In this document: one piece after another, positions 17,106 to 34,611 of the stretch
Layout: each line of letters starts with the position of its first letter
How positions within the stretch are numbered: the stretch's first letter is position 1
Assembly: GCA_949840935.1 (NCBI GenBank)
Contig: CATKXX010000001.1
Location: forward strand, 1 to 64,000
Source of the DNA: an uncultured Acetatifactor sp.
GTDB lineage: Bacteria > Bacillota > Clostridia > Lachnospirales > Lachnospiraceae
Reading direction: 5' to 3'
Length of the DNA: 64,000 nucleotides
Notes under the pieces: generated by a model
What the model saw: the letters and a program-made list of their open reading frames with translations, nothing else
Told to the model about the DNA's origin: nothing
Databases searched by the model: none
Position numbers and translations under genes: made by a program

Positions 17106-18812
17106 ATGAATGTGAATGACTTGGAAAGGGACCGAATGACCGGAGAGCTTAGAAGGATAACGGAAATAGACGCATATCTGGATAAGCTTCAGGAATATAA
17201 AAATGATATTCTGATCCTATTGACGGTCAAGGATTCACCGGGACGGCTGATGCCGGATCAGACTCTTAAAAGGGTACGCAGCCTCGGGTGCAGAAATTTC
17301 AAGAATGAGCTCTGGTATACTTATATCGGGATACTTTACCTGGGAGAAGTAAAGGCAGACCTGTGCGGAAGTAACCCGGACGACCCGTCCTATATAGAGC
17401 TTGTGGTGGGCAATGGCATTGTGATCAAGGCAAAGTCTGCATCATGGAATGGGGAAAATATAAATTTTGCTGAGATAAATGGTAAAAATTATACAGGGGA
17501 TTTCCGGGGACTCAATATAGTGACATACGATGTGCGGCGGCGCAGGGTCATTGATTCTGTGGGGTATGACGCACATAACGAAAGAGCGGTGTTCAGGCGG
17601 GCCTTCCTGGCAGATTATTATAAAGAAAAGTATGCATTAAAAAATATTCTTCCCCAAAGGATAAAGATCCGCATCGTATTTTGGGGCGGGGCTTATCTGT
17701 GGAATGTTTTTAAGACGATCGTAGATGAATTCAACAGGGAATGGATGTATGATATCAAGATTGTCCAGTTGAACAAAGTGATGTCCGCCGCTGAATTTTT
17801 TGACAAAAAGGGGCTGAGTCATTGCTTTTACACGGACTATGATATCAGGCAGGATTCACCGGATATTATTCTGTTTGCCACTAATAACAGTACGGATATT
17901 TACAGTGATAAAATACTGACTGAAATGAGGGAAAATGCAAAGCTGTTAATAGCGGTTCCTGTTTCATTGGTTTTTAACTCTTATGACGACACTGATATTT
18001 GTTACAACGGGCTGGTCTGCAGGCTGAAGAAGAAGGGGATAGATTTTGTGATAACAGACCGGCTCATATATGAAACATTATGGCGCGGCAAAAAGGCTGA
18101 CCCCTTTATGAGGGATATCGGGAATGCCAAGTTTGACTCGATTTATTTAAAACTGAAGGAACAGAAGGAGCTGCCGGATACGTGGGCGGAAAAGGTTGAG
18201 AATAAAAAAGTCGTATTGTGGCTGTTGGATCATGACTTTGAAGAAGGCACTAATGTCACCTTTGATTTGTATGCGAAAGCCGTTTTTGAATTTATCCAGC
18301 AGCATGAAAATGTGTGCCTGATCTTCAGGCCCCATCCCTTTTTCCTGACGGACATTAAGCGCCTGGGAATCTGGTCGGAGGATCAGGCGGAGGAATTCAG
18401 GAAGTATATCGAGCATATGCCCGATATGATCTGGGATGAATATCAGGACTATTCCCTGGCATATCAGACAGCGGATCTGATCTTGTCGGATGTGGCATGT
18501 GGGACGACAGTTTCAGCGCTTTCCACGAAAAAGCCAATGGCTGTTTTGTTAAGGAATGATTGTGACGTGGATATTAAACATCCGGAGATCATTGACAATC
18601 TGTATGTATGCAGGAATTCTGGGGAATTGATGAGCTTCCTGGAAAATGTGGATGAGAGAAACGATCCGCTGAGGGAACAGAGATATGCAGCGGCAGAAAA
18701 GTATATCAGTCATTTTGATGGACAGAATGGAAAACGGATTAAGGAGTTTGTAATGGAAAAGTATCAGGAGAAATGCACAGGGAAAAATGCCGGGGGGGGG
18801 GGTAAGACCTGA
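17106..18812 (+). CDS. ILEI/FAM3-like domain fused to CDP-glycerol glycerophosphotransferase-type domain (1)
   Basis: A 568-aa cytosolic or peripheral protein. Residues about 15-170 carry the ILEI/FAM3-like halves (ILLTVKDSPG; then INFAEINGKNYTGDFRGLNIVTYD and YDAHNER). Residues about 185-560 resemble the TagF/TagB polymerase family (Glyphos_transf): KKVVLWLLDHDF, the catalytic-type RPHP, WDEYQDYSLAYQTADLILSD and a late conserved HFDGQNGKRIK. Such enzymes transfer polyol-phosphate from CDP-polyol to the glycan. A G run of 11 sits at codons 563-566, so length changes alter only the C-terminus. The gene follows the DUF6270 gene with a 0-bp gap. Confidence 0.8.
   Translation: MNVNDLERDRMTGELRRITEIDAYLDKLQEYKNDILILLTVKDSPGRLMPDQTLKRVRSLGCRNFKNELWYTYIGILYLGEVKADLCGSNPDDPSYIELVVGNGIVIKAKSASWNGENINFAEINGKNYTGDFRGLNIVTYDVRRRRVIDSVGYDAHNERAVFRRAFLADYYKEKYALKNILPQRIKIRIVFWGGAYLWNVFKTIVDEFNREWMYDIKIVQLNKVMSAAEFFDKKGLSHCFYTDYDIRQDSPDIILFATNNSTDIYSDKILTEMRENAKLLIAVPVSLVFNSYDDTDICYNGLVCRLKKKGIDFVITDRLIYETLWRGKKADPFMRDIGNAKFDSIYLKLKEQKELPDTWAEKVENKKVVLWLLDHDFEEGTNVTFDLYAKAVFEFIQQHENVCLIFRPHPFFLTDIKRLGIWSEDQAEEFRKYIEHMPDMIWDEYQDYSLAYQTADLILSDVACGTTVSALSTKKPMAVLLRNDCDVDIKHPEIIDNLYVCRNSGELMSFLENVDERNDPLREQRYAAAEKYISHFDGQNGKRIKEFVMEKYQEKCTGKNAGGGGKT
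18792..18802 (+). repeat. poly-G tract (11 G) at the 3' end of a transferase gene
   Basis: This is the longest G run in the window. With 11 G the ORF stops at 18812. With 12 G a TAA follows at once. With 10 G it reads on to a TAG at 18880-18882, past the start of the next gene at 18864. The effect would be on the C-terminal tail and on translational coupling to the next gene rather than on the catalytic domain. Confidence 0.9.
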
Positions 18813-18863
18813 AGAGGTTCATTGCCCGGGCTTTGCAGATCTGACGATCGGAGGTGGTCATTT

Positions 18864-20492
18864 ATGGCAAATGGCAGCGTAGAAATCCGTCAGATCAATG
18901 AAATACACGCTTATCTGTATGCGTTACAGAATCTGAAAGACTGCCTGATCGCTGTGGCTGCAAAGGATACGCTGGGGTTCTGCCTGACAGAGGATATCAA
19001 TGCAGAACTGCAGAAGCTGGGATTTACGGTCACTCTGACCAAGATGCACTGGCGGGGCTTTGCAGGGGCGGTACTGGATGGGAAGGCAGTATTTGAAAGA
19101 TTAGGCGAAAAAGACCAGGCAGTCTGCGAGGAAAAGGGTATTGCAGACACCGCGTTAAAAATAGTGAGTAAACCATATAACAATGGTAACCTTGCAGAAA
19201 TCTGTATCAATGGGATCAATTATGCCGTTAACAGGAGAGGGCTGAACATCGTTGTCTATGACCTTAAAAAGAAATGTGTAATGGACGCCGTTGCGTTTGA
19301 CACACACGCGAAGGAGCTGAAAATCACCCGTGAGGATTTGACCAAAATCCTTTACAGAAATAAGGTAAACCTGGATGCAATCCTGCCGTCTAAAATAGAA
19401 GTGCGCATTTTCTGGGAAGGAGAGGTACATTTATGGAATGTGATCAAGTCTGTGGTATATGCATTCCATGCGGATTGCCGTTTTCATACGGCAGTGGTCT
19501 GCTGGATACCGCCGAATTACGGTACTGCACAGGATAAAATTGAGAGGCTGAAGGAGCTCAATATAGAAGGCGTCCTGTACGATCCACAGGATATCGAAAG
19601 CGCGGATATTGTGATCACAATGCCGCGAAACAGGATCATGAAGATCATTACCTGTAAAAAGATGGTGGCTGCCGTCCCTATGAGCCTGGTGGAGGATTTT
19701 ACGAAAGAACTGCTGGATACGCCGGAGAATGTCCATCTGGATTATCTGATATTGGACAAGCTCTTGTATGATCAGGCGGAGAAAAATAATCTGTTATGCC
19801 CGCAGATAAAATTGATCGGCAGCCCCAAGTTTGATGAAATTTACAATAAATTAAAAGAAACGGAATTCCCGGACAAATGGGGAAAAATAAAAGGGAAAAC
19901 AGTTTTCTTATGGACGACAGATCATGTATGGAGAAGCGCGAATGTCACATTTGACTTGTATGCCAGGAAAATATTTGAGTATTTTGAGAGGAACAATGAT
20001 GTTGCGCTGATCTTCAGGCCGCATCCGGTATATATAGCAGAAATGCTGAATGAAAGGTTCTGGACAAAAGAGGATGTTGGCCGTTTACGTACTTATTTTG
20101 AGAATACTGCCAATATGATATGGGATGAGATGCCTGATTATTCCATGGCATATAAAACGGCTGACGCAGTCATCACGGATGTCAATTGTGGAATTGCGGT
20201 TTCCGCACTTGCCCTGCTGAAACCAATGTGTATTCTTCGGAGATTTGACGGCCAGTCCTGCGAGCCTTTGTTCCCGGAGATTACGGATTGTCTGTATAAT
20301 GCCGGAAGTGTGAAAGAATGCATGGACTTCTTTGACAGGGTGCGGGAGGATAAAACATATACCTGTGAGCAGGTAAAAGAGGTCTTTGAGAAGTCAATCC
20401 ATTATTTTGACGGACAGAATGGAAAACGGATAAAGGACTTTGTGGTGGAAGAATATTTCAAAAGATATGGGAGGCAGGATGGTAACAGTTAA
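18864..20492 (+). CDS. ILEI/FAM3-like domain fused to CDP-glycerol glycerophosphotransferase-type domain (2)
   Basis: A paralog of the preceding gene (542 aa). The ATG at 18864 has GGAGG 7 bp upstream; an in-frame upstream start at 18822 lacks a site. The N-terminal domain shows LIAVAAKDTLGF, a gap, then NNGNLAEICINGINYAV, RRGLNIVVYD and AFDTHAKE. The C-terminal part shows KTVFLWTTDHVWRSANVTFDLYAR, FRPHPVYIAEM, WDEMPDYSMAYKTADAVITD and HYFDGQNGKRIK. The two copies share the whole architecture, so they arose by duplication and may act on consecutive polyol-phosphate additions. The 3' end overlaps the next gene by 14 nt. Confidence 0.82.
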   Translation: MANGSVEIRQINEIHAYLYALQNLKDCLIAVAAKDTLGFCLTEDINAELQKLGFTVTLTKMHWRGFAGAVLDGKAVFERLGEKDQAVCEEKGIADTALKIVSKPYNNGNLAEICINGINYAVNRRGLNIVVYDLKKKCVMDAVAFDTHAKELKITREDLTKILYRNKVNLDAILPSKIEVRIFWEGEVHLWNVIKSVVYAFHADCRFHTAVVCWIPPNYGTAQDKIERLKELNIEGVLYDPQDIESADIVITMPRNRIMKIITCKKMVAAVPMSLVEDFTKELLDTPENVHLDYLILDKLLYDQAEKNNLLCPQIKLIGSPKFDEIYNKLKETEFPDKWGKIKGKTVFLWTTDHVWRSANVTFDLYARKIFEYFERNNDVALIFRPHPVYIAEMLNERFWTKEDVGRLRTYFENTANMIWDEMPDYSMAYKTADAVITDVNCGIAVSALALLKPMCILRRFDGQSCEPLFPEITDCLYNAGSVKECMDFFDRVREDKTYTCEQVKEVFEKSIHYFDGQNGKRIKDFVVEEYFKRYGRQDGNS

Positions 20493-21261
20493 TACCGCGG
20501 AGCTTACAACAGAAGACAATCAGTTAGAAGGAAACCGGCTGATATACAAAAACCGGAAATGCCATTGTAAGATTGTATTTAAAGGGACGGGAAGCAGCGT
20601 TGAGATAGGCGAAAATGTCACTTTGCCGAATAACTGCATTCTGACGATCCCGAATAACTGTACGGTCAGAATCTCTGATAATGTTTCTATCGTGGGCGGT
20701 TATATGTTGTTTTCGGATAACTGTGAATTGTTTATTGACAAAAACGTGAGATTTCGCGGGTTGAAAAGGCTTAGGCTATTCCGGTATGCGGAAGCGTTTA
20801 TCGGGGCAAATACCACAATTGGGGGGGGTATCGCATTAGATGTGCACAGTTATTGCAAGCTGGCGGTCGGGAAGGACTGCCTGCTTTCCTGGGACATTGA
20901 AATCCTGTGCGGGGACGGGCACCAGATCATTGACGTCCGGGAAGGGAAACTGATAAACAGCCCTCTGGATAATCCGGAGACAGTTGTGATTGGCGACCAT
21001 GTCTGGATAGGGGGCGAATGCTGCATTATGACAGGCGCGCTTATAGGCACGGGGTCTGTTGTGGGATATAAAAGCACGGTCAATAAGAAATTTCCAAATA
21101 ATGTAGTCCTGGCAGGTATCCCGGCGAGGATTGTGAGAGAGGATGCGGCATGGGTGTCGCGTGAATGGTCGGATGCAGAAGAATATTATCACACAAAATT
21201 ACCGGCGGAATACAAGCAGCTGACGGATCCGGGCTATGCGGAAAAGCTTGCTTCTGAATGA
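20479..21261 (+). CDS. hexapeptide-repeat acyltransferase
   Basis: A left-handed beta-helix O-acyltransferase, probably O-acetyl (260 aa). The ATG at 20479 has GGGAGG in front and overlaps the previous stop; an upstream TTG at 20440 is unlikely. Repeated I/V-G-x-N hexads start at about 35 (VEIGENVTLPNNCILTIPNN) and end with IGDHVWIGGECCIMTGALIGTGSVVG and VLAGIPARIV, the classic acetyl-CoA-binding LbH end. GDGH contains the likely catalytic His. A run of eight G at 20821-20828 falls in codons 115-117, in frame here. It likely decorates the surface polymer and may be switchable. Confidence 0.88.
   Translation: MVTVNTAELTTEDNQLEGNRLIYKNRKCHCKIVFKGTGSSVEIGENVTLPNNCILTIPNNCTVRISDNVSIVGGYMLFSDNCELFIDKNVRFRGLKRLRLFRYAEAFIGANTTIGGGIALDVHSYCKLAVGKDCLLSWDIEILCGDGHQIIDVREGKLINSPLDNPETVVIGDHVWIGGECCIMTGALIGTGSVVGYKSTVNKKFPNNVVLAGIPARIVREDAAWVSREWSDAEEYYHTKLPAEYKQLTDPGYAEKLASE
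20821..20828 (+). repeat. poly-G tract (8 G), frame ON
   Basis: Eight G within the acyltransferase beta-helix (ANTTIGGGIALD). It is in frame at this length; a single-base slip would remove the catalytic C-terminal half. Confidence 0.88.
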
Positions 21262-21309: not shown

Positions 21310-22152
21310 ATGCTGCTTGACTTACATTTACATACAACTGCTTCTGACGGGCAGTACACACCGTCAGAGACAATTGCTATGGCGAAGGGGAAAAAACTGG
21401 GTATCGCTGCCGTCACAGACCATGACACGGTAAGCGGCATTTCGGAGGCAAGGGAGAAGGCCGCGGAGATAGGGCTTTTCTTTGTACCCGGGATTGAGAT
21501 CAGCACACAGAGGGAAGAAGAAATCCATATACTGGGATATGGGATTGACGAGTCTTACCCGGGGCTTGTGGACAGCTGCCGTGTCTGGGAGGAGGACAGG
21601 CTGAACAGGGGGAGCCGTATCTGTTCCTTTTTTCAAAGGCGCAATATCCCTTTAAAGCTTGATGAGGTAAAGCGGATTGCAGGGGACGGCAGCATGGGAA
21701 GGCCGCACTTTGCACGCTGGCTCCAGGAGCACGGATATGTGGGGGACAGGAGGGAAGCCTTTCACCGTTTCCTGGATACCCCGGAATTCCATGCGGAGAC
21801 AGACCGGGTTAAGCCTGCGCCGGAGGAGGCGATCGCGTTGATCCATGAGGCGGGCGGGAAGGCCGTCCTGGCGCATCCCGGACTGCTGAAGATCACGCTG
21901 CAGGAGCAGGAGCGGCTGATCGCAGAGCTAGCGGAGCAGGGGCTGGACGGCCTGGAATGCTTTTACAGCAGGCATAGTACTGGACAGACGGACATCTATC
22001 TGTCACTGGCGGAAAGAATGCGCTTATGGATATCCTGCGGCTCGGATTTCCATGGGGAGAAGGTGAAGCCTGTGGAGATGGGCATGGAATTATCGCAGGA
22101 GTATGTAGAAAAACTAGTGATCAATGTGATTGACCAGAAAGGCATGGAATGA
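21310..22152 (+). CDS. PHP-family phosphatase, candidate 3',5'-nucleotide bisphosphatase
   Basis: A metal-dependent phosphoesterase of the COG0613 PHP family (280 aa). Metal ligands are visible in LDLHLHTTASDG (His6, His8), VTDHDT (about 39-44), PGIEIS (Glu), AHPG, and SDFHG near the end; MGRPHFARWL is the internal family motif. Characterised relatives (E. coli YciV/RNase AM and Chromobacterium Cv1693) remove the 3' phosphate from 3',5'-nucleotide bisphosphates. Its stop overlaps the start of the glutamine kinase gene (ATGA), so I infer that it recycles the 3'-phospho-CMP released when activated phosphoramidate is transferred. The family assignment is firm; the substrate is inferred from context. 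Confidence 0.88.
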   Translation: MLLDLHLHTTASDGQYTPSETIAMAKGKKLGIAAVTDHDTVSGISEAREKAAEIGLFFVPGIEISTQREEEIHILGYGIDESYPGLVDSCRVWEEDRLNRGSRICSFFQRRNIPLKLDEVKRIAGDGSMGRPHFARWLQEHGYVGDRREAFHRFLDTPEFHAETDRVKPAPEEAIALIHEAGGKAVLAHPGLLKITLQEQERLIAELAEQGLDGLECFYSRHSTGQTDIYLSLAERMRLWISCGSDFHGEKVKPVEMGMELSQEYVEKLVINVIDQKGME

Positions 22153-24485
22153 GGATGGACTATACGAAAGCGGAAATGCTGCAGTATCTGAAAGAAAATA
22201 TCCCAGAGATTCATATTCTTCCGGTATTGATCGTGGACAGCGGGCAGTTTGAGAGCGATCAGGAGCAGGAGACAGACAGGATCATTGACTTTTCACAGGG
22301 GGAAAACCTGATCGTCCGTTCCTCGTCTGCCATGGAGGATACAAAGGGGTATTCCAACGCCGGGAAATTCGAGTCCATCTTAAATGTCGCTCCCGACAGG
22401 GAACATGTCAGTGAGGCGGTACGCCGGGTCTATGAATCCTACGAAACCAGGGAGGCTCAGCAGATACTGGTTCAGCCCATGCTGCGGAATATAAAGAAGT
22501 CGGGGGTCATATTTACGGCGGATATGGATACGCTGGCGGACTATTATATTGCCAATTATTATGAGGGGAATGATTCCGCAGCCGTTACCAGCGGAAGTAC
22601 AGGGGAATTGAAGACCTATGTGCAATATAAAAAGAGCAGCATGGGACAGCTTGACCCGGATATGTCCAATCTGATCCGGTCATGCCGGTATATAGAAGCC
22701 TTTCTGGGAAACAGGGCGCTGGATATCGAATTTGCCATTACTTCCGGGGGGACTGTGTACATCCTCCAGGTAAGGCCTGTTGCAACGGGGAATAAGCAGA
22801 AATATGAATATGTGGATATTGAGCCTGCGCTGAGGCGGATTTATAAAAAAGCGTGCAAGCTGGCAAGGAGGCATCCCTTTTTGCTGGGGGACACCACCTG
22901 CTTTGGCGTAATGCCGGACTGGAATCCGGCGGAGATCCTGGGGGTAAGGCCCAAGAAGCTGGCTGTTTCCCTTTACAAGGAATTGGTCACGGACAGTATA
23001 TGGGCGCATCAGAGGCATAATTACGGGTATCGCGACCTGACGATGCACCCGCTGATGATCTCTTTCTGCGGCATCCCTTACATAGATACCAGGATAACAT
23101 TTAATTCCTTCATCCCGCAGAACCTGAACGAGACGATCGCGGAAAAGCTGGTAAACTTTTATCTGGCCAAGCTGGCCGCATATCCGAAATACCATGACAA
23201 GATAGAGTTTGAGATCGTATATTCCTGCTATTATCTTGGATTACACAATGACCTGAAGGAATTGATGCGGTATGGATTTAATGAAAATGAGATCACAAGG
23301 ATAGAATTCTCCCTGCTGGAATTGACAAACAATATCATAAATCCACATACCGGCCTGTACAAGAAGGACATCGAGAGGATTGAAATCCTGAAAACAAATT
23401 ATGGCAGGATCATGCATTCGGAAATCTCGCTTGTGGATAAGATTTACTGGCTGATTGAGCAGTGCAAGGAGTACGGCACCCTGCCCTTTGCAGGGGTGGC
23501 AAGGGCGGGCTTTATCGCCGTCCAGTTTATGAAGTCTTTTGTCAAAATGGGAATCATTGACAAGGAAGAATACGATCTGTATATGAATTCCCTGGATACG
23601 GTGAATAAGCAGCTGAATCATGATCTGCGCAGCTATTGCAGGAATGAGATGACTAAGGAGCAGTTTTTGGAGAAATACGGGCATATCAGGCCGGGGACAT
23701 ATGATATCCTGTCGAAGCGCTATGATGAGGGTTTTGAAGAATATTTTTCCAGAGACAGCTATCTCCAGGAGGAAGCGGCGGACAGGGAATTCAGCTTTTC
23801 CCAGGCGCAGAGGGAGCGGATCCAGCTGGAGCTGGATCAGAACGGGCTGCTGATAACGACGGATGCGCTGCTGACATTTATAAAGGAGTCCATCGAGGGC
23901 CGGGAGTATCTGAAATTTGTTTTTACCAGATGTGTGAGCGATATCCTGAGACTGATAGAGGAGCTGGGAAAGAGGGCGGAAATCGGGAAGGAGGATATGG
24001 CCCATCTGGATATATCCGTTGTGAAGCAGCTGTATGTGGATTTATTTGCCGGTGAGATGAGAGCTATATTTCTGGAGAATATCAATAATAATAAAATGCA
24101 GTATGAGAATTCTGTGAGGATAAAGCTGCCGGGGATCATTGTGCATCCGGAGGATGTGTATTCTTTCTACCTGTTGAGTGATGAGCCGAATTTTATTACC
24201 CAGAAGTCAGTTACCTCCGAGGCTGCGGTGATCGGGGATAATGAGTATGAGGGGAAGATTGTCTTTATCCAGGCGGCGGATCCGGGCTATGATTTCCTGT
24301 TTTCCAAGAATATTGCGGGGCTGGTAACACAGTTTGGAGGCGCTAATTCCCATATGGCGATCCGGTGCGCCGAGCTGGGAATCCCGGCTGTTATCGGGGC
24401 AGGGGAGGCTAATTTCACCGAATGGTCGAAATACAGCGTGATGACGATTGACTGCCTGAAGAAGCAGGTCATCAAAATCCGGTAA
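22149..24485 (+). CDS. PEP-synthase-like L-glutamine kinase (Cj1418 type)
   Basis: A 778-aa enzyme with the PEP-utiliser plan: an ATP-binding PPDK N-terminal domain (VRSSSAMEDTKGYSNAGKFES near 60, ILQVRPVA near 213), a central helical domain with GVMPDWNPAEILGVRP, and a C-terminal swivelling domain with the phosphohistidine (GGANSHMAIRCAELGIPAVIG, His735). Campylobacter Cj1418 (about 770 aa, catalytic His near 737) phosphorylates the side-chain amide of glutamine, the first step to phosphoramidate. Kinase, hydrolase and cytidylyltransferase partners of that pathway all follow within 5.5 kb, which makes this reading much more likely than true PEP synthase. ATGA overlap couples it to the PHP gene. 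Confidence 0.88.
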   Translation: MRMDYTKAEMLQYLKENIPEIHILPVLIVDSGQFESDQEQETDRIIDFSQGENLIVRSSSAMEDTKGYSNAGKFESILNVAPDREHVSEAVRRVYESYETREAQQILVQPMLRNIKKSGVIFTADMDTLADYYIANYYEGNDSAAVTSGSTGELKTYVQYKKSSMGQLDPDMSNLIRSCRYIEAFLGNRALDIEFAITSGGTVYILQVRPVATGNKQKYEYVDIEPALRRIYKKACKLARRHPFLLGDTTCFGVMPDWNPAEILGVRPKKLAVSLYKELVTDSIWAHQRHNYGYRDLTMHPLMISFCGIPYIDTRITFNSFIPQNLNETIAEKLVNFYLAKLAAYPKYHDKIEFEIVYSCYYLGLHNDLKELMRYGFNENEITRIEFSLLELTNNIINPHTGLYKKDIERIEILKTNYGRIMHSEISLVDKIYWLIEQCKEYGTLPFAGVARAGFIAVQFMKSFVKMGIIDKEEYDLYMNSLDTVNKQLNHDLRSYCRNEMTKEQFLEKYGHIRPGTYDILSKRYDEGFEEYFSRDSYLQEEAADREFSFSQAQRERIQLELDQNGLLITTDALLTFIKESIEGREYLKFVFTRCVSDILRLIEELGKRAEIGKEDMAHLDISVVKQLYVDLFAGEMRAIFLENINNNKMQYENSVRIKLPGIIVHPEDVYSFYLLSDEPNFITQKSVTSEAAVIGDNEYEGKIVFIQAADPGYDFLFSKNIAGLVTQFGGANSHMAIRCAELGIPAVIGAGEANFTEWSKYSVMTIDCLKKQVIKIR

Positions 24486-24494
24486 AGGAGCAGC

Positions 24495-25034
24495 ATGATG
24501 AAAAGATTTATGATTTATATGGTAGGCATCAGCGGAAGCGGTAAAACAACGATTGCCAGGGCGCTGGAGAAAGAGATAGGAAAGAGATCCGGACTGAAGA
24601 TGCAGCTGATAGACGGGGATATTATCCGCGGTGAATTCGGAGGTGTGTTCGGATATACCTATGAGGAAAGGATGAAATGCAACCAGGCAGTGCGCGTTGT
24701 GGTGAAGTATCTGATACAAAATGATATTTCCGTTGTCCTTTCGCAGGTTGGCGCATATGAGGCCATGCGCCGGAATGTCAGGAACGATTTCAGCGGGCTG
24801 TCCGATTATATTGAGATTTATGTGAAATGCTCCGTTGAGGAATGTATGCGGAGGGATGTGAAGGGCTATTACAAAAAGCATGAGCAGGGCGAAATGGAGA
24901 ATTTAAACGGGGTGAGCGATACGTTTGAGATACCGCAGAATGCAGAGCTTGTGATCGATACGGAGAAGGTCACTGTGGAGGAGGCTGTGGGCAGCATCCT
25001 CCGTTACCTGGAGGAAAAGGGTTATGAATTATAA
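24495..25034 (+). CDS. APS-kinase-like CDP-phosphoramidate kinase (Cj1415 type)
   Basis: A small P-loop kinase (179 aa) of the adenylylsulfate kinase fold. Walker A is GISGSGKTT (11-19), followed by LIDGDIIRGEF (the DGD/R acceptor-site motif) and a C-terminal EIYVKCSVEECMRRDVKGYYKK lid. There are no sulfate-assimilation partners here; the flanking genes match the phosphoramidate pathway, in which Cj1415 phosphorylates the ribose 3'-OH of CDP-phosphoramidate. AAAGGAG lies before the ATG, 9 bp after the kinase stop. It overlaps the next gene by 11 nt. Confidence 0.87.
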   Translation: MMKRFMIYMVGISGSGKTTIARALEKEIGKRSGLKMQLIDGDIIRGEFGGVFGYTYEERMKCNQAVRVVVKYLIQNDISVVLSQVGAYEAMRRNVRNDFSGLSDYIEIYVKCSVEECMRRDVKGYYKKHEQGEMENLNGVSDTFEIPQNAELVIDTEKVTVEEAVGSILRYLEEKGYEL

Positions 25035-25559
25035 GTATATTACAGAGGACAATCTGGAGAATAAGCAGACTTACATGTACAGCGAGTATGGAGGGGAGGA
25101 CTTCCTGAAAGCGTATGTGAAATCCCGGGAAGATGTGATAGAGAACATAAATTTCTCCGGGGGGGGGTAAGACATAATACATACGCCGAATTAAAAAAGA
25201 CATGGGAAGAAATGAGAGATGCGGACAATTTGGAAGCGGAAACAAAGCATGTCATTGACCTGTATGTGAAAGCCTTTGAAGTGCGGAAGCGGTTATACAC
25301 AGGATATGATGAGATGTGGAAGCCCTGCAGGAAGGAATTCCGGGATTATGGGAGCTATCTGCTGTTTGGGAACATTCTGGCAGCAGCCTATCGCAGAACG
25401 GAATGTTTGAAGTATGCCAGCTGCCTGATGAAATTGACGGACAGCCTGATTTCTGTCATAACGCTGTTAAGAGAGGCGGAACAATATGAATTGGCGCTTA
25501 TCTTAGGCAGTGAATTAGAGATTTACAGGGATATCAGGAGAACAGGAGGCGCGGGATGA
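25024..25559 (+). CDS. phase-variable gene of unknown function in phosphoramidate operon (OFF in this assembly)
   Basis: The ATG at 25024 overlaps the kinase stop and has upstream purine-rich GGAGGAAAAGGG. The first 48 codons end in a run of nine G followed by TAA. With ten G (or seven) the frame runs on through the segment 25167-25559 to a TGA that overlaps the next ATG by four bases (ATGA), giving about 178 aa. The C-terminal part is helical (ETKHVIDLYVKAFEVRKRL; LAAAYRRTECLKYASCLMKLTD). No family is recognised. Its position among phosphoramidate genes makes it a candidate accessory or transfer factor, switched by the G tract. Confidence 0.72.
25159..25167 (+). repeat. poly-G tract (9 G), frame OFF
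   Basis: Nine G at codons 46-48 of the gene at 25024. Nine G read into TAA; eight G give GGT AAG ACA TAA, also a stop; ten or seven G open the frame into the downstream coding segment. Confidence 0.93.
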
Positions 25560-26323
25560 TACTTTCAGACTTTGCACTTATAGCTTCCAATACGGCGAGG
25601 ACAAAGGCATATATCCAGATCATGGCAGGACGGGGGCTTTTTCCGTCAGCCTGTATCGTTTACGCGGAGGATATGGATGTACTTTACCGGGAGAGCAGGG
25701 ATTATACAGGCTCCATGGACATGGGGGATTATTTTAACCGTGATATCCCATTGCTCACCTTGATGGATCATTTTTCCATGAAGTATATTGTTGTGAAAGA
25801 TAAGGACATCAATTCTGATAGCATGATCGAATGCATTCGGGGGCTTCCGCAGACTTATTTTATTTATTCGGGATATGGAGGAGCCATACTGAAATCGACT
25901 CTGTTTCAGCTGGGAAAGAATTTTCTGCATGTCCATGCGGGAATACTGCCGGAGTACCGGGGGTCTACGACCGCCTATTACAGCATCTTAAAGGAGGGCT
26001 GTCTGGGGGCTACGGCAATCTTCCTGAATGAAAAGATTGACGAGGGCCGGATGATCTGCCGGAAAAGGTTTGCGCTGCCGGAAGAAACGGTAGATATTGA
26101 TTATATTTATGAACCTTATATCAGGGCGCAGGTCCTGCTGATGGCGCTGGAATATTATGTGAAACATGGCAGGTTTGATGTCCAGGGGCAGTCGGATGAA
26201 AATGCGGAGACCTATTACATTATTCATCCTGTTTTAAAGCATCTTGCCCTAAATTATGTCAGGGAGGGGTTTCATGAAGATTGTGTTGTTCACACAGAGA
26301 GTAGAGATAGTAGAAAGCTATAA
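25556..26323 (+). CDS. formyltransferase-fold protein with altered catalytic Asn
   Basis: A 255-aa protein whose residues about 85-200 match the formyl-tetrahydrofolate-dependent transferase domain: FLHVHAGILPEYRGSTTAYYSILKEG and LNEKIDEGRMI. The family triad is Asn-x-His plus Asp. Here His127 and Asp162 are present at normal spacing, but the Asn position is His125. It is coupled to the switchable gene upstream by an ATGA overlap and overlaps the amidotransferase-like gene by about 50 nt. It may formylate an amino sugar of the glycan, or act on the phosphoramidate; the changed residue leaves the chemistry open. No methyltransferase like Cj1419/Cj1420 is in the window. Confidence 0.78.
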   Translation: MILSDFALIASNTARTKAYIQIMAGRGLFPSACIVYAEDMDVLYRESRDYTGSMDMGDYFNRDIPLLTLMDHFSMKYIVVKDKDINSDSMIECIRGLPQTYFIYSGYGGAILKSTLFQLGKNFLHVHAGILPEYRGSTTAYYSILKEGCLGATAIFLNEKIDEGRMICRKRFALPEETVDIDYIYEPYIRAQVLLMALEYYVKHGRFDVQGQSDENAETYYIIHPVLKHLALNYVREGFHEDCVVHTESRDSRKL

Positions 26324-26894
26324 GGAGAGAAGGGACTGTGCGGACCAGCGCATAGCGGAATTTATCAGCGCGGCCGGTTTCCTGCCGGTTCCGGTTCCGA
26401 ACAATGGGGATACAGCGGAAAGCCTTGTGGGGGAATTAAAGCCGGCGGGGATCGTCCTGACAGGCGGTAACAGCCTGGCCGCATACGGAGGAAATGCCCC
26501 GGAGAGGGATCGTGTGGATGAAACGCTGATCAGGGCCGGCATAGAACAGGGAATTCCGGTATATGGGTTCTGCAGGGGGATGCAGTCCATATTGGCGTAT
26601 TTTGGAAATGAGCTGAAGAACGTAACCGGACATGTGGCGGTGAGGCATGATGTCAGCGGTGAGATCAGCAGGAATGTAAACAGCTATCACAACCAGGCGT
26701 GTCTGGAATTAAGGGAAGGCTGCGGGCTTGTGTGTGCGGCGCGGGCGGAAGACGGGATTATTGAGGCGGTAAAGCATACGGATTATCCGATCATGGCGAC
26801 CATGTGGCATCCCGAGAGGGAAGATGGCTTTCATGAGGCGGATCTAAAGATGGTGAGGGATTTATTTTTACAGAAAGGCGGAGTGGAGCGATGA
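26274..26894 (+). CDS. class I glutamine amidotransferase-like gamma-glutamyl-CDP-amidate hydrolase (Cj1417 type)
   Basis: A 206-aa GATase1 enzyme. The ATG at 26274 has AGGGAGGGG in front. The triad is visible: nucleophile Cys100 in YGFCRGMQ, and His179 with Glu181 in MWHPERED. Also seen are the oxyanion-type LTGGNSLAAYGG and the adjacent RDRVDETLIRAG. There is no synthase partner for anthranilate, CTP or GMP. In Campylobacter Cj1417 cleaves gamma-glutamyl-CDP-amidate to glutamate and CDP-phosphoramidate; the neighbours here supply the other steps. It overlaps the cytidylyltransferase gene by ATGA. Confidence 0.87.
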   Translation: MKIVLFTQRVEIVESYKERRDCADQRIAEFISAAGFLPVPVPNNGDTAESLVGELKPAGIVLTGGNSLAAYGGNAPERDRVDETLIRAGIEQGIPVYGFCRGMQSILAYFGNELKNVTGHVAVRHDVSGEISRNVNSYHNQACLELREGCGLVCAARAEDGIIEAVKHTDYPIMATMWHPEREDGFHEADLKMVRDLFLQKGGVER

Positions 26895-27670
26895 AAGCGA
26901 TTATTTTGGCAGCAGGCCAGGGGACAAGGTTAAAGAAGTATACGGAGAATCTGCCGAAGGGGATGCTCTCCTTTGACGGCAAGACGATCATAGAGCGCCA
27001 GATAGAGATGTACAGGGCCCAGGGGCTGGACAAGATCATTGTTGTCAGAGGCTTTGCGGCGGACAGGATTGATTATGACGGCGTCACCTATTATACCAAC
27101 GAAGATTACGCGAATACCAATATGGTGGAGTCCCTTATGGCGGCAAGGGAAGAATTTGATGATGATATTATAGTGAGTTATTCCGATATCCTGTTTGAGG
27201 AGAACATGTTGAAGACAATGCTTTCGTCCAAAGCGGAATTTGGCGTTGCCGTGGATGATAACTGGCAGGCGTATTGGGAAAAGCGCTATGGCAGGGTGGA
27301 CTTTGACACAGAGAGCCTGGCGATTGACGCAAACGACAATATAACGGAGCTTGGCCTGGAAAGCCCTGAGCTTTCAGCGATTGACGCAAGATATATAGGG
27401 CTGCTCAGGTTTTCAAAAGGCGGGCTGTCAAAAATAGAAGCGATTCTGGAGGATGCCTACAAAAACTATCAGGATAAGCCCTGGCAGCAGTCGGGAAAAA
27501 CCGTCAGGAAGGCGTATATGACCGACCTGCTCAATGCGCTGATCGAAGCGGGGGAACAGGTAAAGGCCATACACTTCACCAATGGATGGATTGAGTTTGA
27601 TACTAATGAGGATTACGAGAATGCCTGTGAGTGGGTAAAGGACGGATCGATTCGGGAGCTGATCCGGTAG
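26891..27670 (+). CDS. LicC-like cytidylyltransferase, phosphoglutamine cytidylyltransferase (Cj1416 type)
   Basis: A Rossmann-type nucleotidyltransferase (259 aa). The N-terminus MKAIILAAGQGTRLKK has GxGTR and the following PKGML Lys; SYSDILFEE carries the metal Asp, and GWIEFDTNEDYENA closes the active site as in LicC/Cj1416. LicC itself makes CDP-choline, but no choline kinase, choline transporter or LicD is present, while the phosphoramidate partners are. It would therefore join CTP and L-glutamine phosphate. It is the last enzyme of the coupled operon block and is followed by a switchable GlfT2-like gene. Confidence 0.86.
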   Translation: MKAIILAAGQGTRLKKYTENLPKGMLSFDGKTIIERQIEMYRAQGLDKIIVVRGFAADRIDYDGVTYYTNEDYANTNMVESLMAAREEFDDDIIVSYSDILFEENMLKTMLSSKAEFGVAVDDNWQAYWEKRYGRVDFDTESLAIDANDNITELGLESPELSAIDARYIGLLRFSKGGLSKIEAILEDAYKNYQDKPWQQSGKTVRKAYMTDLLNALIEAGEQVKAIHFTNGWIEFDTNEDYENACEWVKDGSIRELIR

Positions 27671-27728
27671 TATAGCGATGGAAAAGGGAAACCGGAATAC
27701 GCAGGCCGGGGAAGGGGACAGTATTGTT

Positions 27729-29538
27729 ATGTACAAGCTGCAGAAAATTCTGACAAACGGTTTTATTGAAATAGACGATACCCGGCATATGTATTACAGG
27801 AGTTCGGATGCCATTTATAGCGGGGCTTGCGGGGAAAGTGTTCTGCATAAAGACAATCAGTACGAGTTTTTTACATATTTTAATTCTCTTTCCGTGGAAA
27901 AATGGAAGAAATATACTTATGCGGAACGTTTTTACCTGGTGCTGGATGGGGGGGGGCACTTTCACCATAGACCTGTTCGGGCACTATGGCGAAAGGAAAT
28001 CGGATATCAAGAAGGAATGGCTGGGAAGCTATGATTTTGTCCTGCAGGAGAGGACACAGATCGTTTTGCCTTATCCTGTTGAGATGCGGAGTACGGTGGC
28101 AGCTTTTCAGATCAGGACAAGTGAAAAGACTTTTATCTATGACGCTTATTATGCTGCAGAAGTGGAAGAAGATAAAATATCTTCGCCGTACATAGCACTT
28201 ATAACGACTACCTTCAGGAAAGAATCTTACATAAACAGGAATATCAGCTTGTTGAAGAAGCACCTTTTTTCCGATCCCGTGTATGCGCCGTCATTTTTCT
28301 GGGACATTGTGGATAATGGGGGGACACTTCCGGAGCAGACAGACTATGATCAGAATATCAGGGTTTTTCACAACAAGAATACCGGAGGTGCGGGCGGATT
28401 TGCAAGGGGCATGATAGAGGCATTAAAACAACCGGAAAGGCCTACGCATATTTTGTTAATGGATGATGACGTAATATTTTCACCGGAAAGCTTTAAACGC
28501 ATCTATAAGCTGCTGAGTATTATGAGGCCCCAGTATCAAAATTATTTTATCAGCGGAGCCATGTTGAATATGGGACAGCCGAATATTCAGCATGAAGATG
28601 TCGGTATCCTGGATCCGTTTGGAGCACATGGGCCTGCAAAACCGAGATATGACCTGAACAAATGGGACAGTGTCATTTTAAATGAAACCATGCTTCCGGC
28701 AGATGTTCATCAGTATAGCGGATGGTGGTTCTGCTGTATTCCGGGAACGAAAGTGGATATGGATAATCTCCCCATGCCTTTTTTCGTCAGGGGGGATGAT
28801 GTGGAATATTCTATTCGCAGCCATACAGGCTTTCTTACAATGAATGGAATCTGCATCTGGCATGAGGGCTTTGAAAATAAATTTTCCGGCGCCCTGGAAT
28901 TATACCAGGTGCATCGGAACGATCTGGTCATACAGGCAATACATAAAGAAATGTCAGATATCCCGGTGGTTAAGAGGATCCAGGATCTGTTCTGGCAGGA
29001 AATGTATAAGTTTAATTATAAGGGAGCGGCGCTGCTGCTGGACGCTGTGGAGGACTATCTGAAGGGCCCTGAATATATAATGGGGCTGGATGGCCGGCAA
29101 TGTATGCAGGATAAGCGGGAGAAGGATAATCAGCTTTTTGATATTACGGCGGAAGTGGAAAAGCTGATTGATTATGAGAATCTGTATGTCTATAAACCAT
29201 TGGGAAAACTTATAAAATTTTTATATGATTATTCCTGTAACGGGCACAGGATCCCACTGATCTCCTTGAGAAGGAAGAAGGGAATCATACCGTATGGATG
29301 GGGCTATTATCAGAGAAAGCAGTGCTTTACAAGGGTGAATTATGCAATAGACCCTATAAATCATAAATATGCAATCTATCGACGTTCGGACAGGCTGTTC
29401 CGCGAATTGAAGCAGAGGTATAAGCTTGTTATGAAGGAATATGAGGAAAACAACGCCAGGGTCGCGGAATCATATCGCGCGCGGTCAAAAGAAATGAGGA
29501 GCGGGCCGTTCTGGGAAAAATATTTGGAGATTGGCTGA
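27729..29538 (+). CDS. phase-variable GlfT2-like glycosyltransferase 3 (OFF in this assembly)
   Basis: Full-length homolog of the gene at 13805 that is split by a frameshift at a run of nine G. The first 73 codons (MYKLQKILTNGF, then FFTYFNSLSVEKWKKYTYAERFYLVLDG) align with residues 1-80 of the paralog; from 27957 the matching sequence TFTIDLFGHYGERKSDIKKEW continues in another frame through LMDDDVIF, RGDDVEYSIR and IIPYGWGYYQRKQC to 29538. Removing one G (eight G) gives a 602-aa enzyme. ATG 27729 fits the paralog N-terminus better than ATG 27678. As read here the gene would give a truncated peptide ending near 28034. Function: inverting GT-A transferase, galactofuranosyl-like by family. Confidence 0.88.
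27948..27956 (+). repeat. poly-G tract (9 G), frame OFF
   Basis: Nine G at codons 74-76. Upstream frame continues as GGGH then junk; downstream GT frame needs one G fewer. The comparison with the intact paralog (VLDGKGKF) shows that the correct reading is VLDGGGTF, i.e. eight G. Confidence 0.95.
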
Positions 29539-32691: not shown

Positions 32692-34611
32692 ATGCAGATG
32701 AAAACGAATATACGTAGACAGATAAAAAGCTGTCTGACGAGTGGGGGGGGGTATAACCGCCAGAAAGACAGGCCAGTAAGCGACAGCCGTGCATTGCGGG
32801 AGCAGGATGATCAGACGATCATCAGCACCATCGGAATGGCGGAGCTGCCGCTCATCATAGATGTGCTCTACGACAAATATCATGGGAAATATCAGCTGAT
32901 CGATATCGGCGGCGACTGCATGTTCCGCTTTGGCGAGACAAATGTTGCCAACGTGTCTTATCTCGCTACCTATATCCATTTCATTCAGATAGAAAATAAT
33001 GTGCTCAGGATAGAGGGAAATGTTTCATGGCCGGCTGTGCTGAAGGAGCATTTTAAGTTTTATGTGGTGGTAAACGGCAGGGAATACGCCTGCACAATGT
33101 CCGATGCGGGGCTGAATCTGGCCCACGGCGATAGCGGGAGGGTGTATGAGGCCAGGACGGCCTTCCTTTACGAGCAGAGGCTCGACGAGGGGGAAAGCTG
33201 CCAGATTGCCTTCTGCTATGAGTGTGCGGGGATCAGATGCCGGAGCGGTAAGATCAACTCCATGCGCTTTTCCCCTGTGGCGGATGTACTGGAAAATCAA
33301 TATGCGCTGTGCGGAGGCTGGCTTCTACGGGAGGAAGGTAGCCTTATCAGCGTGCGGAAAATTTCAGAGGGGGAGGCGGCGCTCTGCGAGCGCAGGTTCC
33401 GGGGCTCCTTTGCGCCCAGACTGGGGGAGGATGCCATACGCCGTGTCACGGCTGTCCGGGACGGATATTTCCAGAGGAAGGCCGGGCAGGGAAAGGCCGT
33501 CTGGCTGTTTATGGACAGGATTGACAAGGCGGATGACAACGGGGAAGCGTTCTTTGAGTATGTGTGCGGGCGGAAGCCGGAAAATGTGGAATGCTACTTC
33601 GTCATCGACAGGGCTTCCCCCGATTATGAGAGGCTGTCCAGGGTGGGAAACGTAGTCGATGCCCTGTCCACAGAGCACTGCGTATTGCTGCTTTTGGCGG
33701 AGTATATCTTCACGTCCCAGCTGAACGGATGGGTGGAGAATCCCTACGGGGAACTGGAAGAATATTTCCGGGATCTCTGCCACAGGGCGAAAGTGGTCTT
33801 CCTGCAGCACGGGGTTACCAAGGACGATCAGACGAAATGGCTGAACCGGTATTACCAGAACCTTCATGCAGTGGTATGCAGCGCTTCCCTGGAAAAGAAG
33901 GCTTTCCTGGCGGAGCCGTATTTCTATGAGGAGCGGCAGCTCTGGAATACCGGGATGCCGCGGCTGGACAGGCTGTACGACCGCAGTGAGGATTTCATTT
34001 TATTCATGCCTACCTGGCGAAGGGTGCTGATGGAGCAGCGGTGGGATGGGGAAAAGGGTATTTACCGGTGGCATCTGAGGGAGGGCTTTGGGCAGAGCAG
34101 CTATTACCGTTTTTATCATGAGGTGCTTAATGACAGAAAATTCCTGAGAAGGTGCAGAGAGGCGGGATACCGGGTCATCTTTATGCCCCATCCCATTATG
34201 CAGCCATATATCGGGGAATTCCGGCCGGCGGAGGAGGTGCTAGTCCTGCCGTACCATACCAGCTGGCGGGAGCTGATCGCAAAGAGCCGTATCATGGTCA
34301 CAGACTATTCCTCCGCCGCCTTCGACTTTGCGTATCTGAAGAAGCCGGTGGTCTACTGCCAGTTTGACAGGGAGGAATTCTTTGCCTCCCACACGTATAA
34401 AAGAGGCTATTTCGATTATGAGACCATGGGCTTTGGAGAGATTGTGGCCACGAAACGGGAATTCCTCCAGGTGATATTTGATTACCTGGACAACGGATGC
34501 AGAGAAAAGGACAGGTACAGGGAAAGGGTGGAAGCCTTTTACTCCTGGACGGACAAAAGGTGCTGTGAACGGATCTACGGGAGGGTCATGGAAGAAAGAA
34601 ATGGGATATGA
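32692..34611 (+). CDS. CDP-glycerol glycerophosphotransferase family protein (3)
   Basis: A TagF/TagB-type enzyme (about 639 aa). An N-terminal beta-rich region (about 80-215) precedes the catalytic domain (about 270-635): VWLFMDRIDKADDNGEAFFEY, VFLQHGVTKDD with the catalytic His, TWRRVLM, MPHPIMQPY with the second His, and VTDYSSAAFDFAYLKKPVVYC. The start is uncertain: a TTG at 32659 overlaps the transposase remnant, ATG 32692 or 32698 is more likely. A run of nine G at 32743-32751 lies at about codon 18, in frame here. The family transfers glycerol- or ribitol-phosphate from the CDP form to a glycan. The next gene overlaps the 3' end. Confidence 0.88.
   Translation: MQMKTNIRRQIKSCLTSGGGYNRQKDRPVSDSRALREQDDQTIISTIGMAELPLIIDVLYDKYHGKYQLIDIGGDCMFRFGETNVANVSYLATYIHFIQIENNVLRIEGNVSWPAVLKEHFKFYVVVNGREYACTMSDAGLNLAHGDSGRVYEARTAFLYEQRLDEGESCQIAFCYECAGIRCRSGKINSMRFSPVADVLENQYALCGGWLLREEGSLISVRKISEGEAALCERRFRGSFAPRLGEDAIRRVTAVRDGYFQRKAGQGKAVWLFMDRIDKADDNGEAFFEYVCGRKPENVECYFVIDRASPDYERLSRVGNVVDALSTEHCVLLLLAEYIFTSQLNGWVENPYGELEEYFRDLCHRAKVVFLQHGVTKDDQTKWLNRYYQNLHAVVCSASLEKKAFLAEPYFYEERQLWNTGMPRLDRLYDRSEDFILFMPTWRRVLMEQRWDGEKGIYRWHLREGFGQSSYYRFYHEVLNDRKFLRRCREAGYRVIFMPHPIMQPYIGEFRPAEEVLVLPYHTSWRELIAKSRIMVTDYSSAAFDFAYLKKPVVYCQFDREEFFASHTYKRGYFDYETMGFGEIVATKREFLQVIFDYLDNGCREKDRYRERVEAFYSWTDKRCCERIYGRVMEERNGI
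32743..32751 (+). repeat. poly-G tract (9 G), frame ON
   Basis: Nine G encode SGGGY near the N-terminus of the transferase. The frame is open at this length; a slip would abolish translation of the whole catalytic part. Confidence 0.9.

What the first reader, a model, noticed from the sequence alone, without database searches (positions are those of the whole stretch)
21310..27670. Phosphoramidate (Campylobacter MeOPN-type) activation pathway in a Gram-positive glycopolymer locus
Four consecutive-operon genes match the four activation enzymes of the C. jejuni capsule phosphoramidate route by fold, size and motifs: glutamine kinase (PEP-synthase-like, His735), APS-kinase-like CDP-NH2 kinase, GATase1-type hydrolase (Cys100/His179/Glu181), and LicC-like cytidylyltransferase. 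None of their usual alternative partners (sulfate, choline or gluconeogenesis genes) is nearby. I know this route from Campylobacter and other Gram-negative capsules; I am not aware of an experimental description in Lachnospiraceae.
Basis: partly seen in the sequence, partly recalled or inferred. Interest (0 to 1): 0.93.

Follow-up and report, generated by a model that had tools for sequence, protein, structure and literature searches.

The report
Gram-positive phosphoramidate sugar-tag operon
Inside a surface-sugar gene cluster of a bacterium that is probably a Lachnospiraceae lie relatives of the four enzymes with which Campylobacter activates a rare phosphorus-nitrogen tag, plus a predicted by-product phosphatase and a likely on/off switch, so Gram-positive bacteria would make such tags too, apparently by a variant route.

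Summary
The operon 21310-27670 encodes a glutamine-kinase homologue (49% identical to C. jejuni over 760 aa), an APS-kinase-fold enzyme, a gamma-glutamyl-CDP-amidate-hydrolase homologue and a cytidylyltransferase. In 80 named relative loci from many phyla, 62 have hydrolase and cytidylyltransferase within 3 kb of the kinase; in three same-family genomes a divergent kinase is fused to the hydrolase. ATP sulfurylase, sulfotransferase and CysQ were not found in this genome (64% complete) or in two near-complete genomes with the same six-gene core, arguing against sulfate use of the APS-kinase-like protein, although its sequence is closer to APS kinases than to the C. jejuni enzyme. I infer synthesis of 3'-phospho-CDP-amidate.

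Beyond Campylobacter: (1) a PHP phosphatase, predicted to recycle the 3'-phosphonucleotide, where other lineages carry CysQ; (2) an uncharacterised pair, SMALL plus a formyltransferase-fold protein with His for the catalytic Asn, found with the pathway in three kinase lineages, in loci without the usual methyltransferase beside the kinase; (3) SMALL is frameshifted at a G9 tract, one of five G>=9 tracts in 25 kb out of eleven in the genome, suggesting phase variation. Transferase and final chemistry are not established. New variant of a known kind.

The parts
18822..20492 (+). Weak CDP-glycerol glycerophosphotransferase-like protein; one of several candidates for the unidentified phosphoramidate transferase
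   Evidence: PF04464 E 2.6e-6; candidate role is inference only
20440..21261 (+). Left-handed beta-helix (hexapeptide) acyltransferase-like gene upstream of the operon
   Evidence: PF00132 E 1.9e-8
21310..22152 (+). PHP-family phosphoesterase, predicted to dephosphorylate the 3',5'-bisphosphonucleotide released on transfer
   Evidence: NF041577 3',5'-nucleoside bisphosphate phosphatase 189.6 bits and RNase RNM 190.4 bits, both under cut-off; PHP motifs present; closest to kinase-linked PHPs of L087/L089
22149..24485 (+). Glutamine kinase homologue (PPDK_N + PEP-utiliser His domain, His735)
   Evidence: 49% identity over 760 aa to C. jejuni L055; NF004508 963 bits
24495..25034 (+). APS-kinase-fold protein, predicted CDP-amidate 3'-kinase
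   Evidence: PF01583 E 6.4e-36; context and failure to find sulfate-activation genes
25024..25559 (+). SMALL: uncharacterised helical protein gene, split into 25024-25170 and a downstream part ending at 25559 by a frameshift at the G9 tract
   Evidence: both halves match one intact protein in relatives
25159..25167 (+). G9 tract at the frameshift point of SMALL; predicted phase-variation switch, now OFF
25556..26323 (+). FTF: formyltransferase-fold protein with His in place of the catalytic Asn (HVH...D)
   Evidence: PF00551 E 1.5e-7; A3 alignment; Foldseek to ArnA formyltransferase E 2.1e-13
26274..26894 (+). GATase1/peptidase C26-type hydrolase, predicted gamma-glutamyl-CDP-amidate hydrolase (Cys100, His179, Glu181)
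   Evidence: best NCBIfam NF045546 107.9 bits; 33% to C. jejuni
26891..27670 (+). LicC-like nucleotidyltransferase, predicted CTP:phosphoglutamine cytidylyltransferase
   Evidence: 36% to C. jejuni over 237 aa; LicC 1jyk E 5.8e-18
27678..29538 (+). Galactofuranosyltransferase-like GT2 gene: the likely 5' part (from 27678, weak Glft2_N match ending at the tract) is out of frame with the rest across a G9 tract at 27948-27956
18792..18802 (+). G11 tract at the 3' end of the 17106-18812 ORF
32743..32751 (+). G9 tract inside an open CDP-glycerol glycerophosphotransferase-like gene (in frame)
43413..43421 (+). G9 tract separating two halves of an NAD-dependent epimerase gene (43200-43442 matches the start of the Epimerase profile, the downstream ORF positions 63-237)

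Best explanation
The operon encodes relatives of the four C. jejuni phosphoramidate-activation enzymes and likely makes 3'-phospho-cytidine-diphosphoramidate, which would be used to put phosphoramidate groups on the teichoic-acid/galactofuranose-like surface polymer that the surrounding genes are predicted to make. Predicted steps, none assayed here: (1) 22149-24485 phosphorylates the amide nitrogen of glutamine with ATP; (2) 26891-27670 joins phosphoglutamine to CTP; (3) the GATase at 26274-26894 removes glutamate, leaving CDP-amidate; (4) the APS-kinase-fold enzyme at 24495-25034 adds a 3'-phosphate; (5) an as yet unidentified transferase moves the phosphoramidate to the polymer; (6) the PHP phosphatase at 21310-22152 strips the 3'-phosphate from the released nucleotide, the job that CysQ does for PAPS-type donors. 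SMALL and the formyltransferase-fold protein (FTF) would modify or deliver the phosphoramidate in place of the Campylobacter methyltransferases, and a G9 tract in SMALL would switch this step on and off. Shown directly: gene content, order, motifs, phylogenetic spread, co-occurrence and the frameshift. Inferred: every activity, and phase variation.
For: Homology: kinase 49% over 760 aa to C. jejuni, GATase 33%, cytidylyltransferase 36%, APS-kinase-fold 33%. Gene-set linkage: of the 80 named loci fetched with the kinase (the best 80 of 525), 72 hold the NTP family, 66 the GATase family, 64 both, 44 the APSK family, 39 all four; within 3 kb and on the kinase's strand: NTP 69, GATase 65, both 62, APSK 37; many loci are cut by contig ends. 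Fusion: three same-family genomes (L005, L006, L007) have a GATase hydrolase domain fused to the C-terminus of a divergent member of the kinase family. Same six-gene order (kinase-APSK-SMALL-FTF-GATase-NTP) in G257, G098 and L101. No sulfate use found: TIGR00339, TIGR02039 and PF13469 match 0 of 3 genomes while controls ring in 5, 10 and 2 of 14. Recycling: CysQ-family genes lie in 14 of 80 loci, all 14 with kinase, GATase and NTP (12 within 3 kb of the kinase); PHP lies in 3 others directly after NTP (L087, L089, L091), never with CysQ; CysQ (TIGR01331) matches 0 of 3 genomes here but rings in 14 of 14 controls; the window PHP scores 268/267/206 bits to these kinase-linked PHPs against at most 196 bits for any PHP in 147 other class genomes. 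SMALL/FTF: in 7 of 80 loci (in L038 with SMALL fused to APSK) plus window, G257 and G098, in three separate kinase lineages; on database contigs 28 of 120 FTF (one is the window's own) and 11 of 73 SMALL homologues share an exact longest-contig length with one of the 120 listed kinases (chance about 0.2 and 0.1).
Against: The APS-kinase-fold protein is closer in sequence to APS kinases (120.6 bits) than to the C. jejuni protein (66 bits). GATase and APSK miss their curated NCBIfam cut-offs. Six of the nine same-family genomes over the kinase-family cut-off hold a long-branch version without NTP or APSK within the stretches fetched, so the kinase family is not always in this pathway. The PHP is not next to the kinase in the nearest relatives L133, L134, L101, and its family models cannot separate nucleotidase from RNase RNM. 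The 14 CysQ and 3 PHP loci are a minority of 80. No transferase is identified. G>=9 matches are not more frequent than in dinucleotide shuffles of the window (15 of 100 shuffles reach the count). The genome is 64% complete, so its own missing genes prove little; the two relatives carry that argument.
Confidence: 0.8

Rival explanations
1. The proteins are a coincidental set of PEP synthase, APS kinase, LicC-type and generic GATase enzymes serving gluconeogenesis, sulfate activation and choline decoration.
For: APSK's closest solved relatives are APS kinases; LicC is the best solved relative of the NTP.
Against: Kinase 739 bits to C. jejuni against at most 34 to PEP synthases; sulfurylase and sulfotransferase not found in three genomes; GATase and NTP within 3 kb of the kinase in 62 of 80 loci; kinase-GATase fusion in relatives.
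Confidence: 0.04
2. The operon makes a P-N activated nucleotide, but for a different end product: the acceptor is a small molecule or protein glycan, or the tag is not a plain phosphoramidate, with FTF acylating the P-N nitrogen or an amino sugar.
For: No hit to the DUF2972 or sulfotransferase-like transferase families in the window; FTF keeps the formyltransferase fold; in the Pseudomonas locus L096 a flagellin gene lies directly upstream of the kinase.
Against: The window is otherwise a polymer locus with ABC transporter, galactofuranosyl- and glycerophosphotransferase-like genes.
Confidence: 0.2
3. The G9 frameshift in SMALL is an assembly error or a fixed pseudogene, not a switch.
For: One draft assembly, no reads; tract count in the window is within dinucleotide shuffles; the four SMALL relatives whose DNA I looked at (L002, L004, L034, L101) have no G>=8 tract in the gene.
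Against: Five of the genome's eleven G>=9 tracts fall in 24.6 kb of this locus, all on the coding strand (P 2e-8 for that stretch, chosen after the fact, 2e-6 for the whole window); at three of them the best-matching reading frame changes at the tract; kinase loci of other Bacillota (L032, L033, L062, L092, L133) also carry G>=9 tracts.
Confidence: 0.35

Closest known systems
Campylobacter jejuni O-methyl phosphoramidate (MeOPN) capsule pathway, cj1415-cj1418 with transferases cj1421/cj1422
   Same: Homologues of all four activation enzymes; surface-glycan locus; poly-G tracts in decoration genes (transferase phase variation: PMC3907429, passages read)
   Different: No hit in the window to the methyltransferase family next to the Campylobacter kinases, nor to the DUF2972 or sulfotransferase-like families; adds PHP phosphatase, SMALL and FTF; Gram-positive host
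Phosphoramidate without O-methyl in lipopolysaccharides of Xanthomonas campestris and Shewanella (named in PMC3907429, passage read)
   Same: Possible non-methylated end group
   Different: Gram-negative LPS; genes not compared here
PAPS cycle: APS kinase, sulfotransferase, CysQ 3'-nucleotidase (scheme recalled)
   Same: Logic: a 3'-phosphorylated nucleotide donor, then a 3'-phosphatase to recycle the product; APS-kinase fold
   Different: Cytidine and phosphoramidate instead of adenosine and sulfate (inferred); PHP instead of CysQ; sulfurylase not found
LicC/LicD phosphocholine decoration
   Same: LicC-like nucleotidyltransferase; LicD gene directly downstream of the NTP in relative L101
   Different: NTP closer to the C. 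jejuni phosphoramidate-locus protein (123 against 69 bits); choline genes were not searched for

Membership tests
C. jejuni-type phosphoramidate activation pathway | Full-length glutamine kinase homologue with the phosphohistidine domain | tested here: met
   49% over 760 aa to C. jejuni, His735 invariant in ten
C. jejuni-type phosphoramidate activation pathway | gamma-Glutamyl-CDP-amidate hydrolase homologue with Cys/His/Glu | tested here: met
   NF045546 is the best family; residues present; 33% to C. jejuni
NF045546 gamma-glutamyl-CDP-amidate hydrolase (curated equivalog) | Score over the curated cut-off of 250 bits | tested here: not met
   107.9 bits; kinase-linked GATases of L101 and L087 also miss it (110.2, 107.4), C. 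jejuni L055 meets it (330.7)
C. jejuni-type phosphoramidate activation pathway | CTP:phosphoglutamine cytidylyltransferase homologue | tested here: met
   36% over 237 aa to C. jejuni; family within 3 kb of the kinase in 69 of 80 loci
C. jejuni-type phosphoramidate activation pathway | CDP-amidate 3'-kinase (APS-kinase fold) | tested here: inconclusive
   Fold met, but sequence nearer to APS kinases; context favours it
C. jejuni-type phosphoramidate activation pathway | Glutamine-dependent P-N bond formation in vitro | not testable with these tools
   no assay possible
MeOPN (O-methylated) decoration | Methyltransferase family of the Campylobacter kinase loci in the locus | tested here: not met
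   family HMM (E <= 0.01) hits 57 of 109 loci, none in the 64 kb window; rest of the genome not searched
MeOPN (O-methylated) decoration | DUF2972 or sulfotransferase-like transferase | tested here: not met
   no hit in the window; PF13469 0 of 3 genomes; PF11186 0 of 3, but its controls did not ring either, so that part proves little
3',5'-nucleoside bisphosphate phosphatase (PHP) | Score over the curated NCBIfam cut-off | tested here: not met
   189.6 bits, cut-off 400; RNase RNM 190.4, cut-off 375. It may still work like one
Formyl-THF N-formyltransferase | Catalytic Asn-x-His...Asp (recalled) | tested here: not met
   Asn replaced by His in all 39 aligned FTF proteins; second His and Asp kept; fold kept
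Poly-G phase-variable (contingency) gene | Tract length varies within a population and toggles the frame | not testable with these tools
   frameshift at the tract shown; no reads or sister strains held

The most novel reading that the evidence does not exclude
Gram-positive bacteria make a new kind of phase-variable P-N glycan tag: 3'-phospho-CDP-amidate is built as in Campylobacter, but instead of O-methylation a repurposed formyltransferase with a His-x-His...Asp site works with the helical partner SMALL to modify or transfer the phosphoramidate, the spent nucleotide is recycled by a PHP phosphatase, and a G9 tract in SMALL switches the tag on and off.
Probability: 0.35. Interest if true: 0.87.

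Novelty: new variant of a known kind. Interest (0 to 1): 0.74.

Why it matters
A 2022 review still calls the glutamine kinase C. jejuni-specific (PMC9561416, passage read). The loci here place it in many phyla, including Gram-positives from animal guts (sheep rectum L033, roe deer rumen L101, record titles), with two different 3'-phosphatase families that would fill a recycling step I found no description of, and with a conserved uncharacterised gene pair that points to end-group chemistry other than methylation. In Campylobacter the tag affects serum resistance and invasion (PMC3907429, passages) and is recognised by a phage (title seen in a reference list); a switchable equivalent in gut bacteria would bear on phage resistance and immune recognition there. 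Every step can be tested with purified proteins.
Full report
What is there. The interval 21310-27670 holds, in order on the + strand, a PHP phosphoesterase (21310-22152), a glutamine-kinase homologue (22149-24485, overlapping it by 4 bases), an APS-kinase-fold gene (24495-25034), a small gene here called SMALL (from 25024, ending at 25559), a formyltransferase-fold gene here called FTF (25556-26323), a GATase-type hydrolase (26274-26894) and a nucleotidyltransferase (26891-27670). The gaps are 10 bases or less, or overlaps, so co-transcription is likely. Around it lie ABC-2 transporter and ATPase genes, GlfT2-like galactofuranosyltransferases, several glycerophosphotransferase-like genes and an IspD-like cytidylyltransferase, i.e. 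a teichoic-acid/galactan-like polymer locus. The kinase groups with Lachnospiraceae and other Bacillota rows (clade of 9, SH-aLRT 100); the genome itself is unnamed.

Identity of the four enzymes. They include C. jejuni and C. coli. Against C. jejuni L055 the window proteins are 49% (kinase, 760 aa), 33% (APSK), 33% (GATase) and 36% (NTP) identical. The kinase scores 739 bits to C. jejuni but no more than 34 bits to solved PEP synthases. By blastp clusters, of 80 loci 77 hold the kinase cluster, 72 NTP, 66 GATase, 64 both of these, 44 APSK and 39 all four; counted only within 3 kb of the kinase and on its strand, NTP is in 69, GATase in 65, both in 62 and APSK in 37. The kinase family hits the PRK05849/NF004508 model, which is named only 'hypothetical protein'. 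In L005, L006 and L007, from other genera of the same family, a divergent kinase (about 34% identical) is fused at its C-terminus to a GATase of the same Pfam family, evidence that these two activities are coupled.

The weak link is the APS-kinase-fold protein, which resembles APS kinases more than the C. jejuni protein (120.6 against 66 bits). I therefore asked whether sulfate activation is possible in the host. Sulfate adenylyltransferase (TIGR00339), CysD (TIGR02039) and Sulfotransfer_3 (PF13469) gave no match in G000 (64% complete), G257 (98%) or G098 (96%), the last two with the same core operon. With no APS source and no PAPS user found, the 3'-kinase role on CDP-amidate is the best reading, but it is inferred.

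Recycling. Transfer from a 3'-phosphorylated donor should release 3'-phospho-CMP (inference from the 3'-phospho-CDP-amidate intermediate named in a PMC6429109 figure legend). A CysQ-family gene (representative L073: TIGR01331 201.5 bits, cut-off 228.8) is present in 14 of the 80 loci, each with kinase, GATase and NTP. In L087, L089 and L091, which lie in a different Bacillota clade of the kinase tree from the window, a PHP gene stands directly after NTP. No locus has both. The window PHP is closer to those kinase-linked PHPs (268, 267, 206 bits) than to any PHP found in a 148-genome class sample that includes its own genome's paralogue (best other 196.4, own paralogue 136.8). CysQ matched none of the three genomes searched, while it rings in 14 of 14 controls. 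I read PHP as a substitute for CysQ; one library search for the step returned no paper.

SMALL and FTF. The APSK-SMALL-FTF order recurs in L034, L096, L097, L098, L101, L106, L133 and L134; in L038 APSK and SMALL are one protein. The kinase tree puts these in three separate lineages: the window's Bacillota clade (6 of its 9 rows: window, L034, L038, L101, L133, L134), Pseudomonas-type, and Verrucomicrobia. SMALL has 73 homologues at E <= 1e-4, none with a Pfam domain, and a confident all-helical model (pLDDT 93.6) without a significant Foldseek match. FTF has 453 homologues (E <= 1e-10, 120 listed), folds like ArnA and Fmt formyltransferases, but in all 39 aligned members the position of the catalytic Asn (recalled) is His (H125), with H127, D162, H224, K228 and H229 invariant. 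This argues against ordinary formyl transfer and would fit a metal site; that is speculation.

Switching. SMALL is broken at G9 25159-25167: the N-terminal part matches the family model from position 1 up to the tract region, and the C-terminal part resumes at 25170 in another frame. Across the 2.89 Mb genome G>=9 occurs at eleven distinct places; five lie between 18792 and 43421, all on the coding strand. At three of the five the matching frame changes at the tract: SMALL (25159); the galactofuranosyltransferase-like gene (27948), where the upstream frame gives a weak Glft2_N match (E 0.0033) that ends at the tract and the downstream frame's own 5' part matches nothing; and the epimerase gene (43413), whose two frames match profile positions 1-32 and 63-237. 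One (32743) is in frame and one (18792) lies at the end of an ORF. The clustering is strong against the genome's own density (P 2e-8 for the stretch, chosen after the fact; 2e-6 for the window) but not against dinucleotide shuffles of the G-rich window (15 of 100 shuffles). C. jejuni transferase genes for the same tag are phase-variable through poly-G tracts (PMC3907429 passages). FTF starts inside the end of SMALL, so the OFF frame may also lower FTF translation; this is inference.

What is not known. The window has no hit to the methyltransferase family, to the DUF2972 cluster or to the sulfotransferase-like cluster that accompany the kinase elsewhere. So the end product is probably not MeOPN, and the transferase is unassigned. 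Kinase-family members without the other genes exist in six of nine same-family genomes over the family cut-off (of 299 searched), so the kinase alone should not be taken as a marker; three of 299 remain with the window-type kinase.

Literature. Searches for phosphoramidate with Lachnospiraceae (3 papers), with capsule + Firmicutes + gene cluster (2), with glutamine kinase + Campylobacter (10), with Gram-positive or cytidine diphosphoramidate (150 at two of three terms, 25 listed), with Cj1422 + transferase (14), and with glutamine kinase + Helicobacter (0) gave no description of this pathway in Gram-positives in the titles and abstract openings listed; homopolymeric tract + phase variation + Lachnospiraceae gave one unrelated paper. 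Of papers I read matching passages only: PMC6429109, PMC6893597, PMC9561416, PMC12409886, PMC10971088, PMC12795558, PMC3907429. The library lacks most subscription journals, so absence from print is not claimed.

Noticed in passing
L135, L136, L137 (fuller stretches of L005-L007); L138-L140: Divergent long-branch glutamine-kinase relatives in other genera of the family, three of them fused to a GATase hydrolase but without NTP or APSK in the stretches fetched; possibly a different P-N or amide pathway.
   Followed up: partly
L096:6028-7704: In a Pseudomonas genome a flagellin gene lies directly upstream of the kinase/GATase/NTP genes, with APSK-SMALL-FTF on the other strand, suggesting flagellin-glycan decoration.
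   Followed up: no
L133:6217-7488, L134:11610-13808, L034:8121-9929, L046:1867-3639, L072:16593-18428: Alkaline-phosphatase-superfamily proteins without a CxPSR-like sulfatase motif in kinase loci; candidate phosphoramidate transferases.
   Followed up: partly
window 27678-29538 and 43200-44203: A galactofuranosyltransferase-like gene and an epimerase gene are also out of frame at G9 tracts, so several polymer genes may switch.
   Followed up: partly
L101:15705-16964: LicD-family gene directly downstream of the NTP in a relative with the same core operon; another transferase candidate.
   Followed up: no
L038:5616-6800: APSK and SMALL fused in one 395-aa protein, linking SMALL to the 3'-kinase step.
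   Followed up: partly
window 40620-43178: 852-aa ORF in the polymer locus with no Pfam match at E <= 0.01.
   Followed up: no
L148:1780-2589: Second PHP phosphoesterase in the window's genome (contig 25), 36% identical to the operon copy; likely the housekeeping one.
   Followed up: yes
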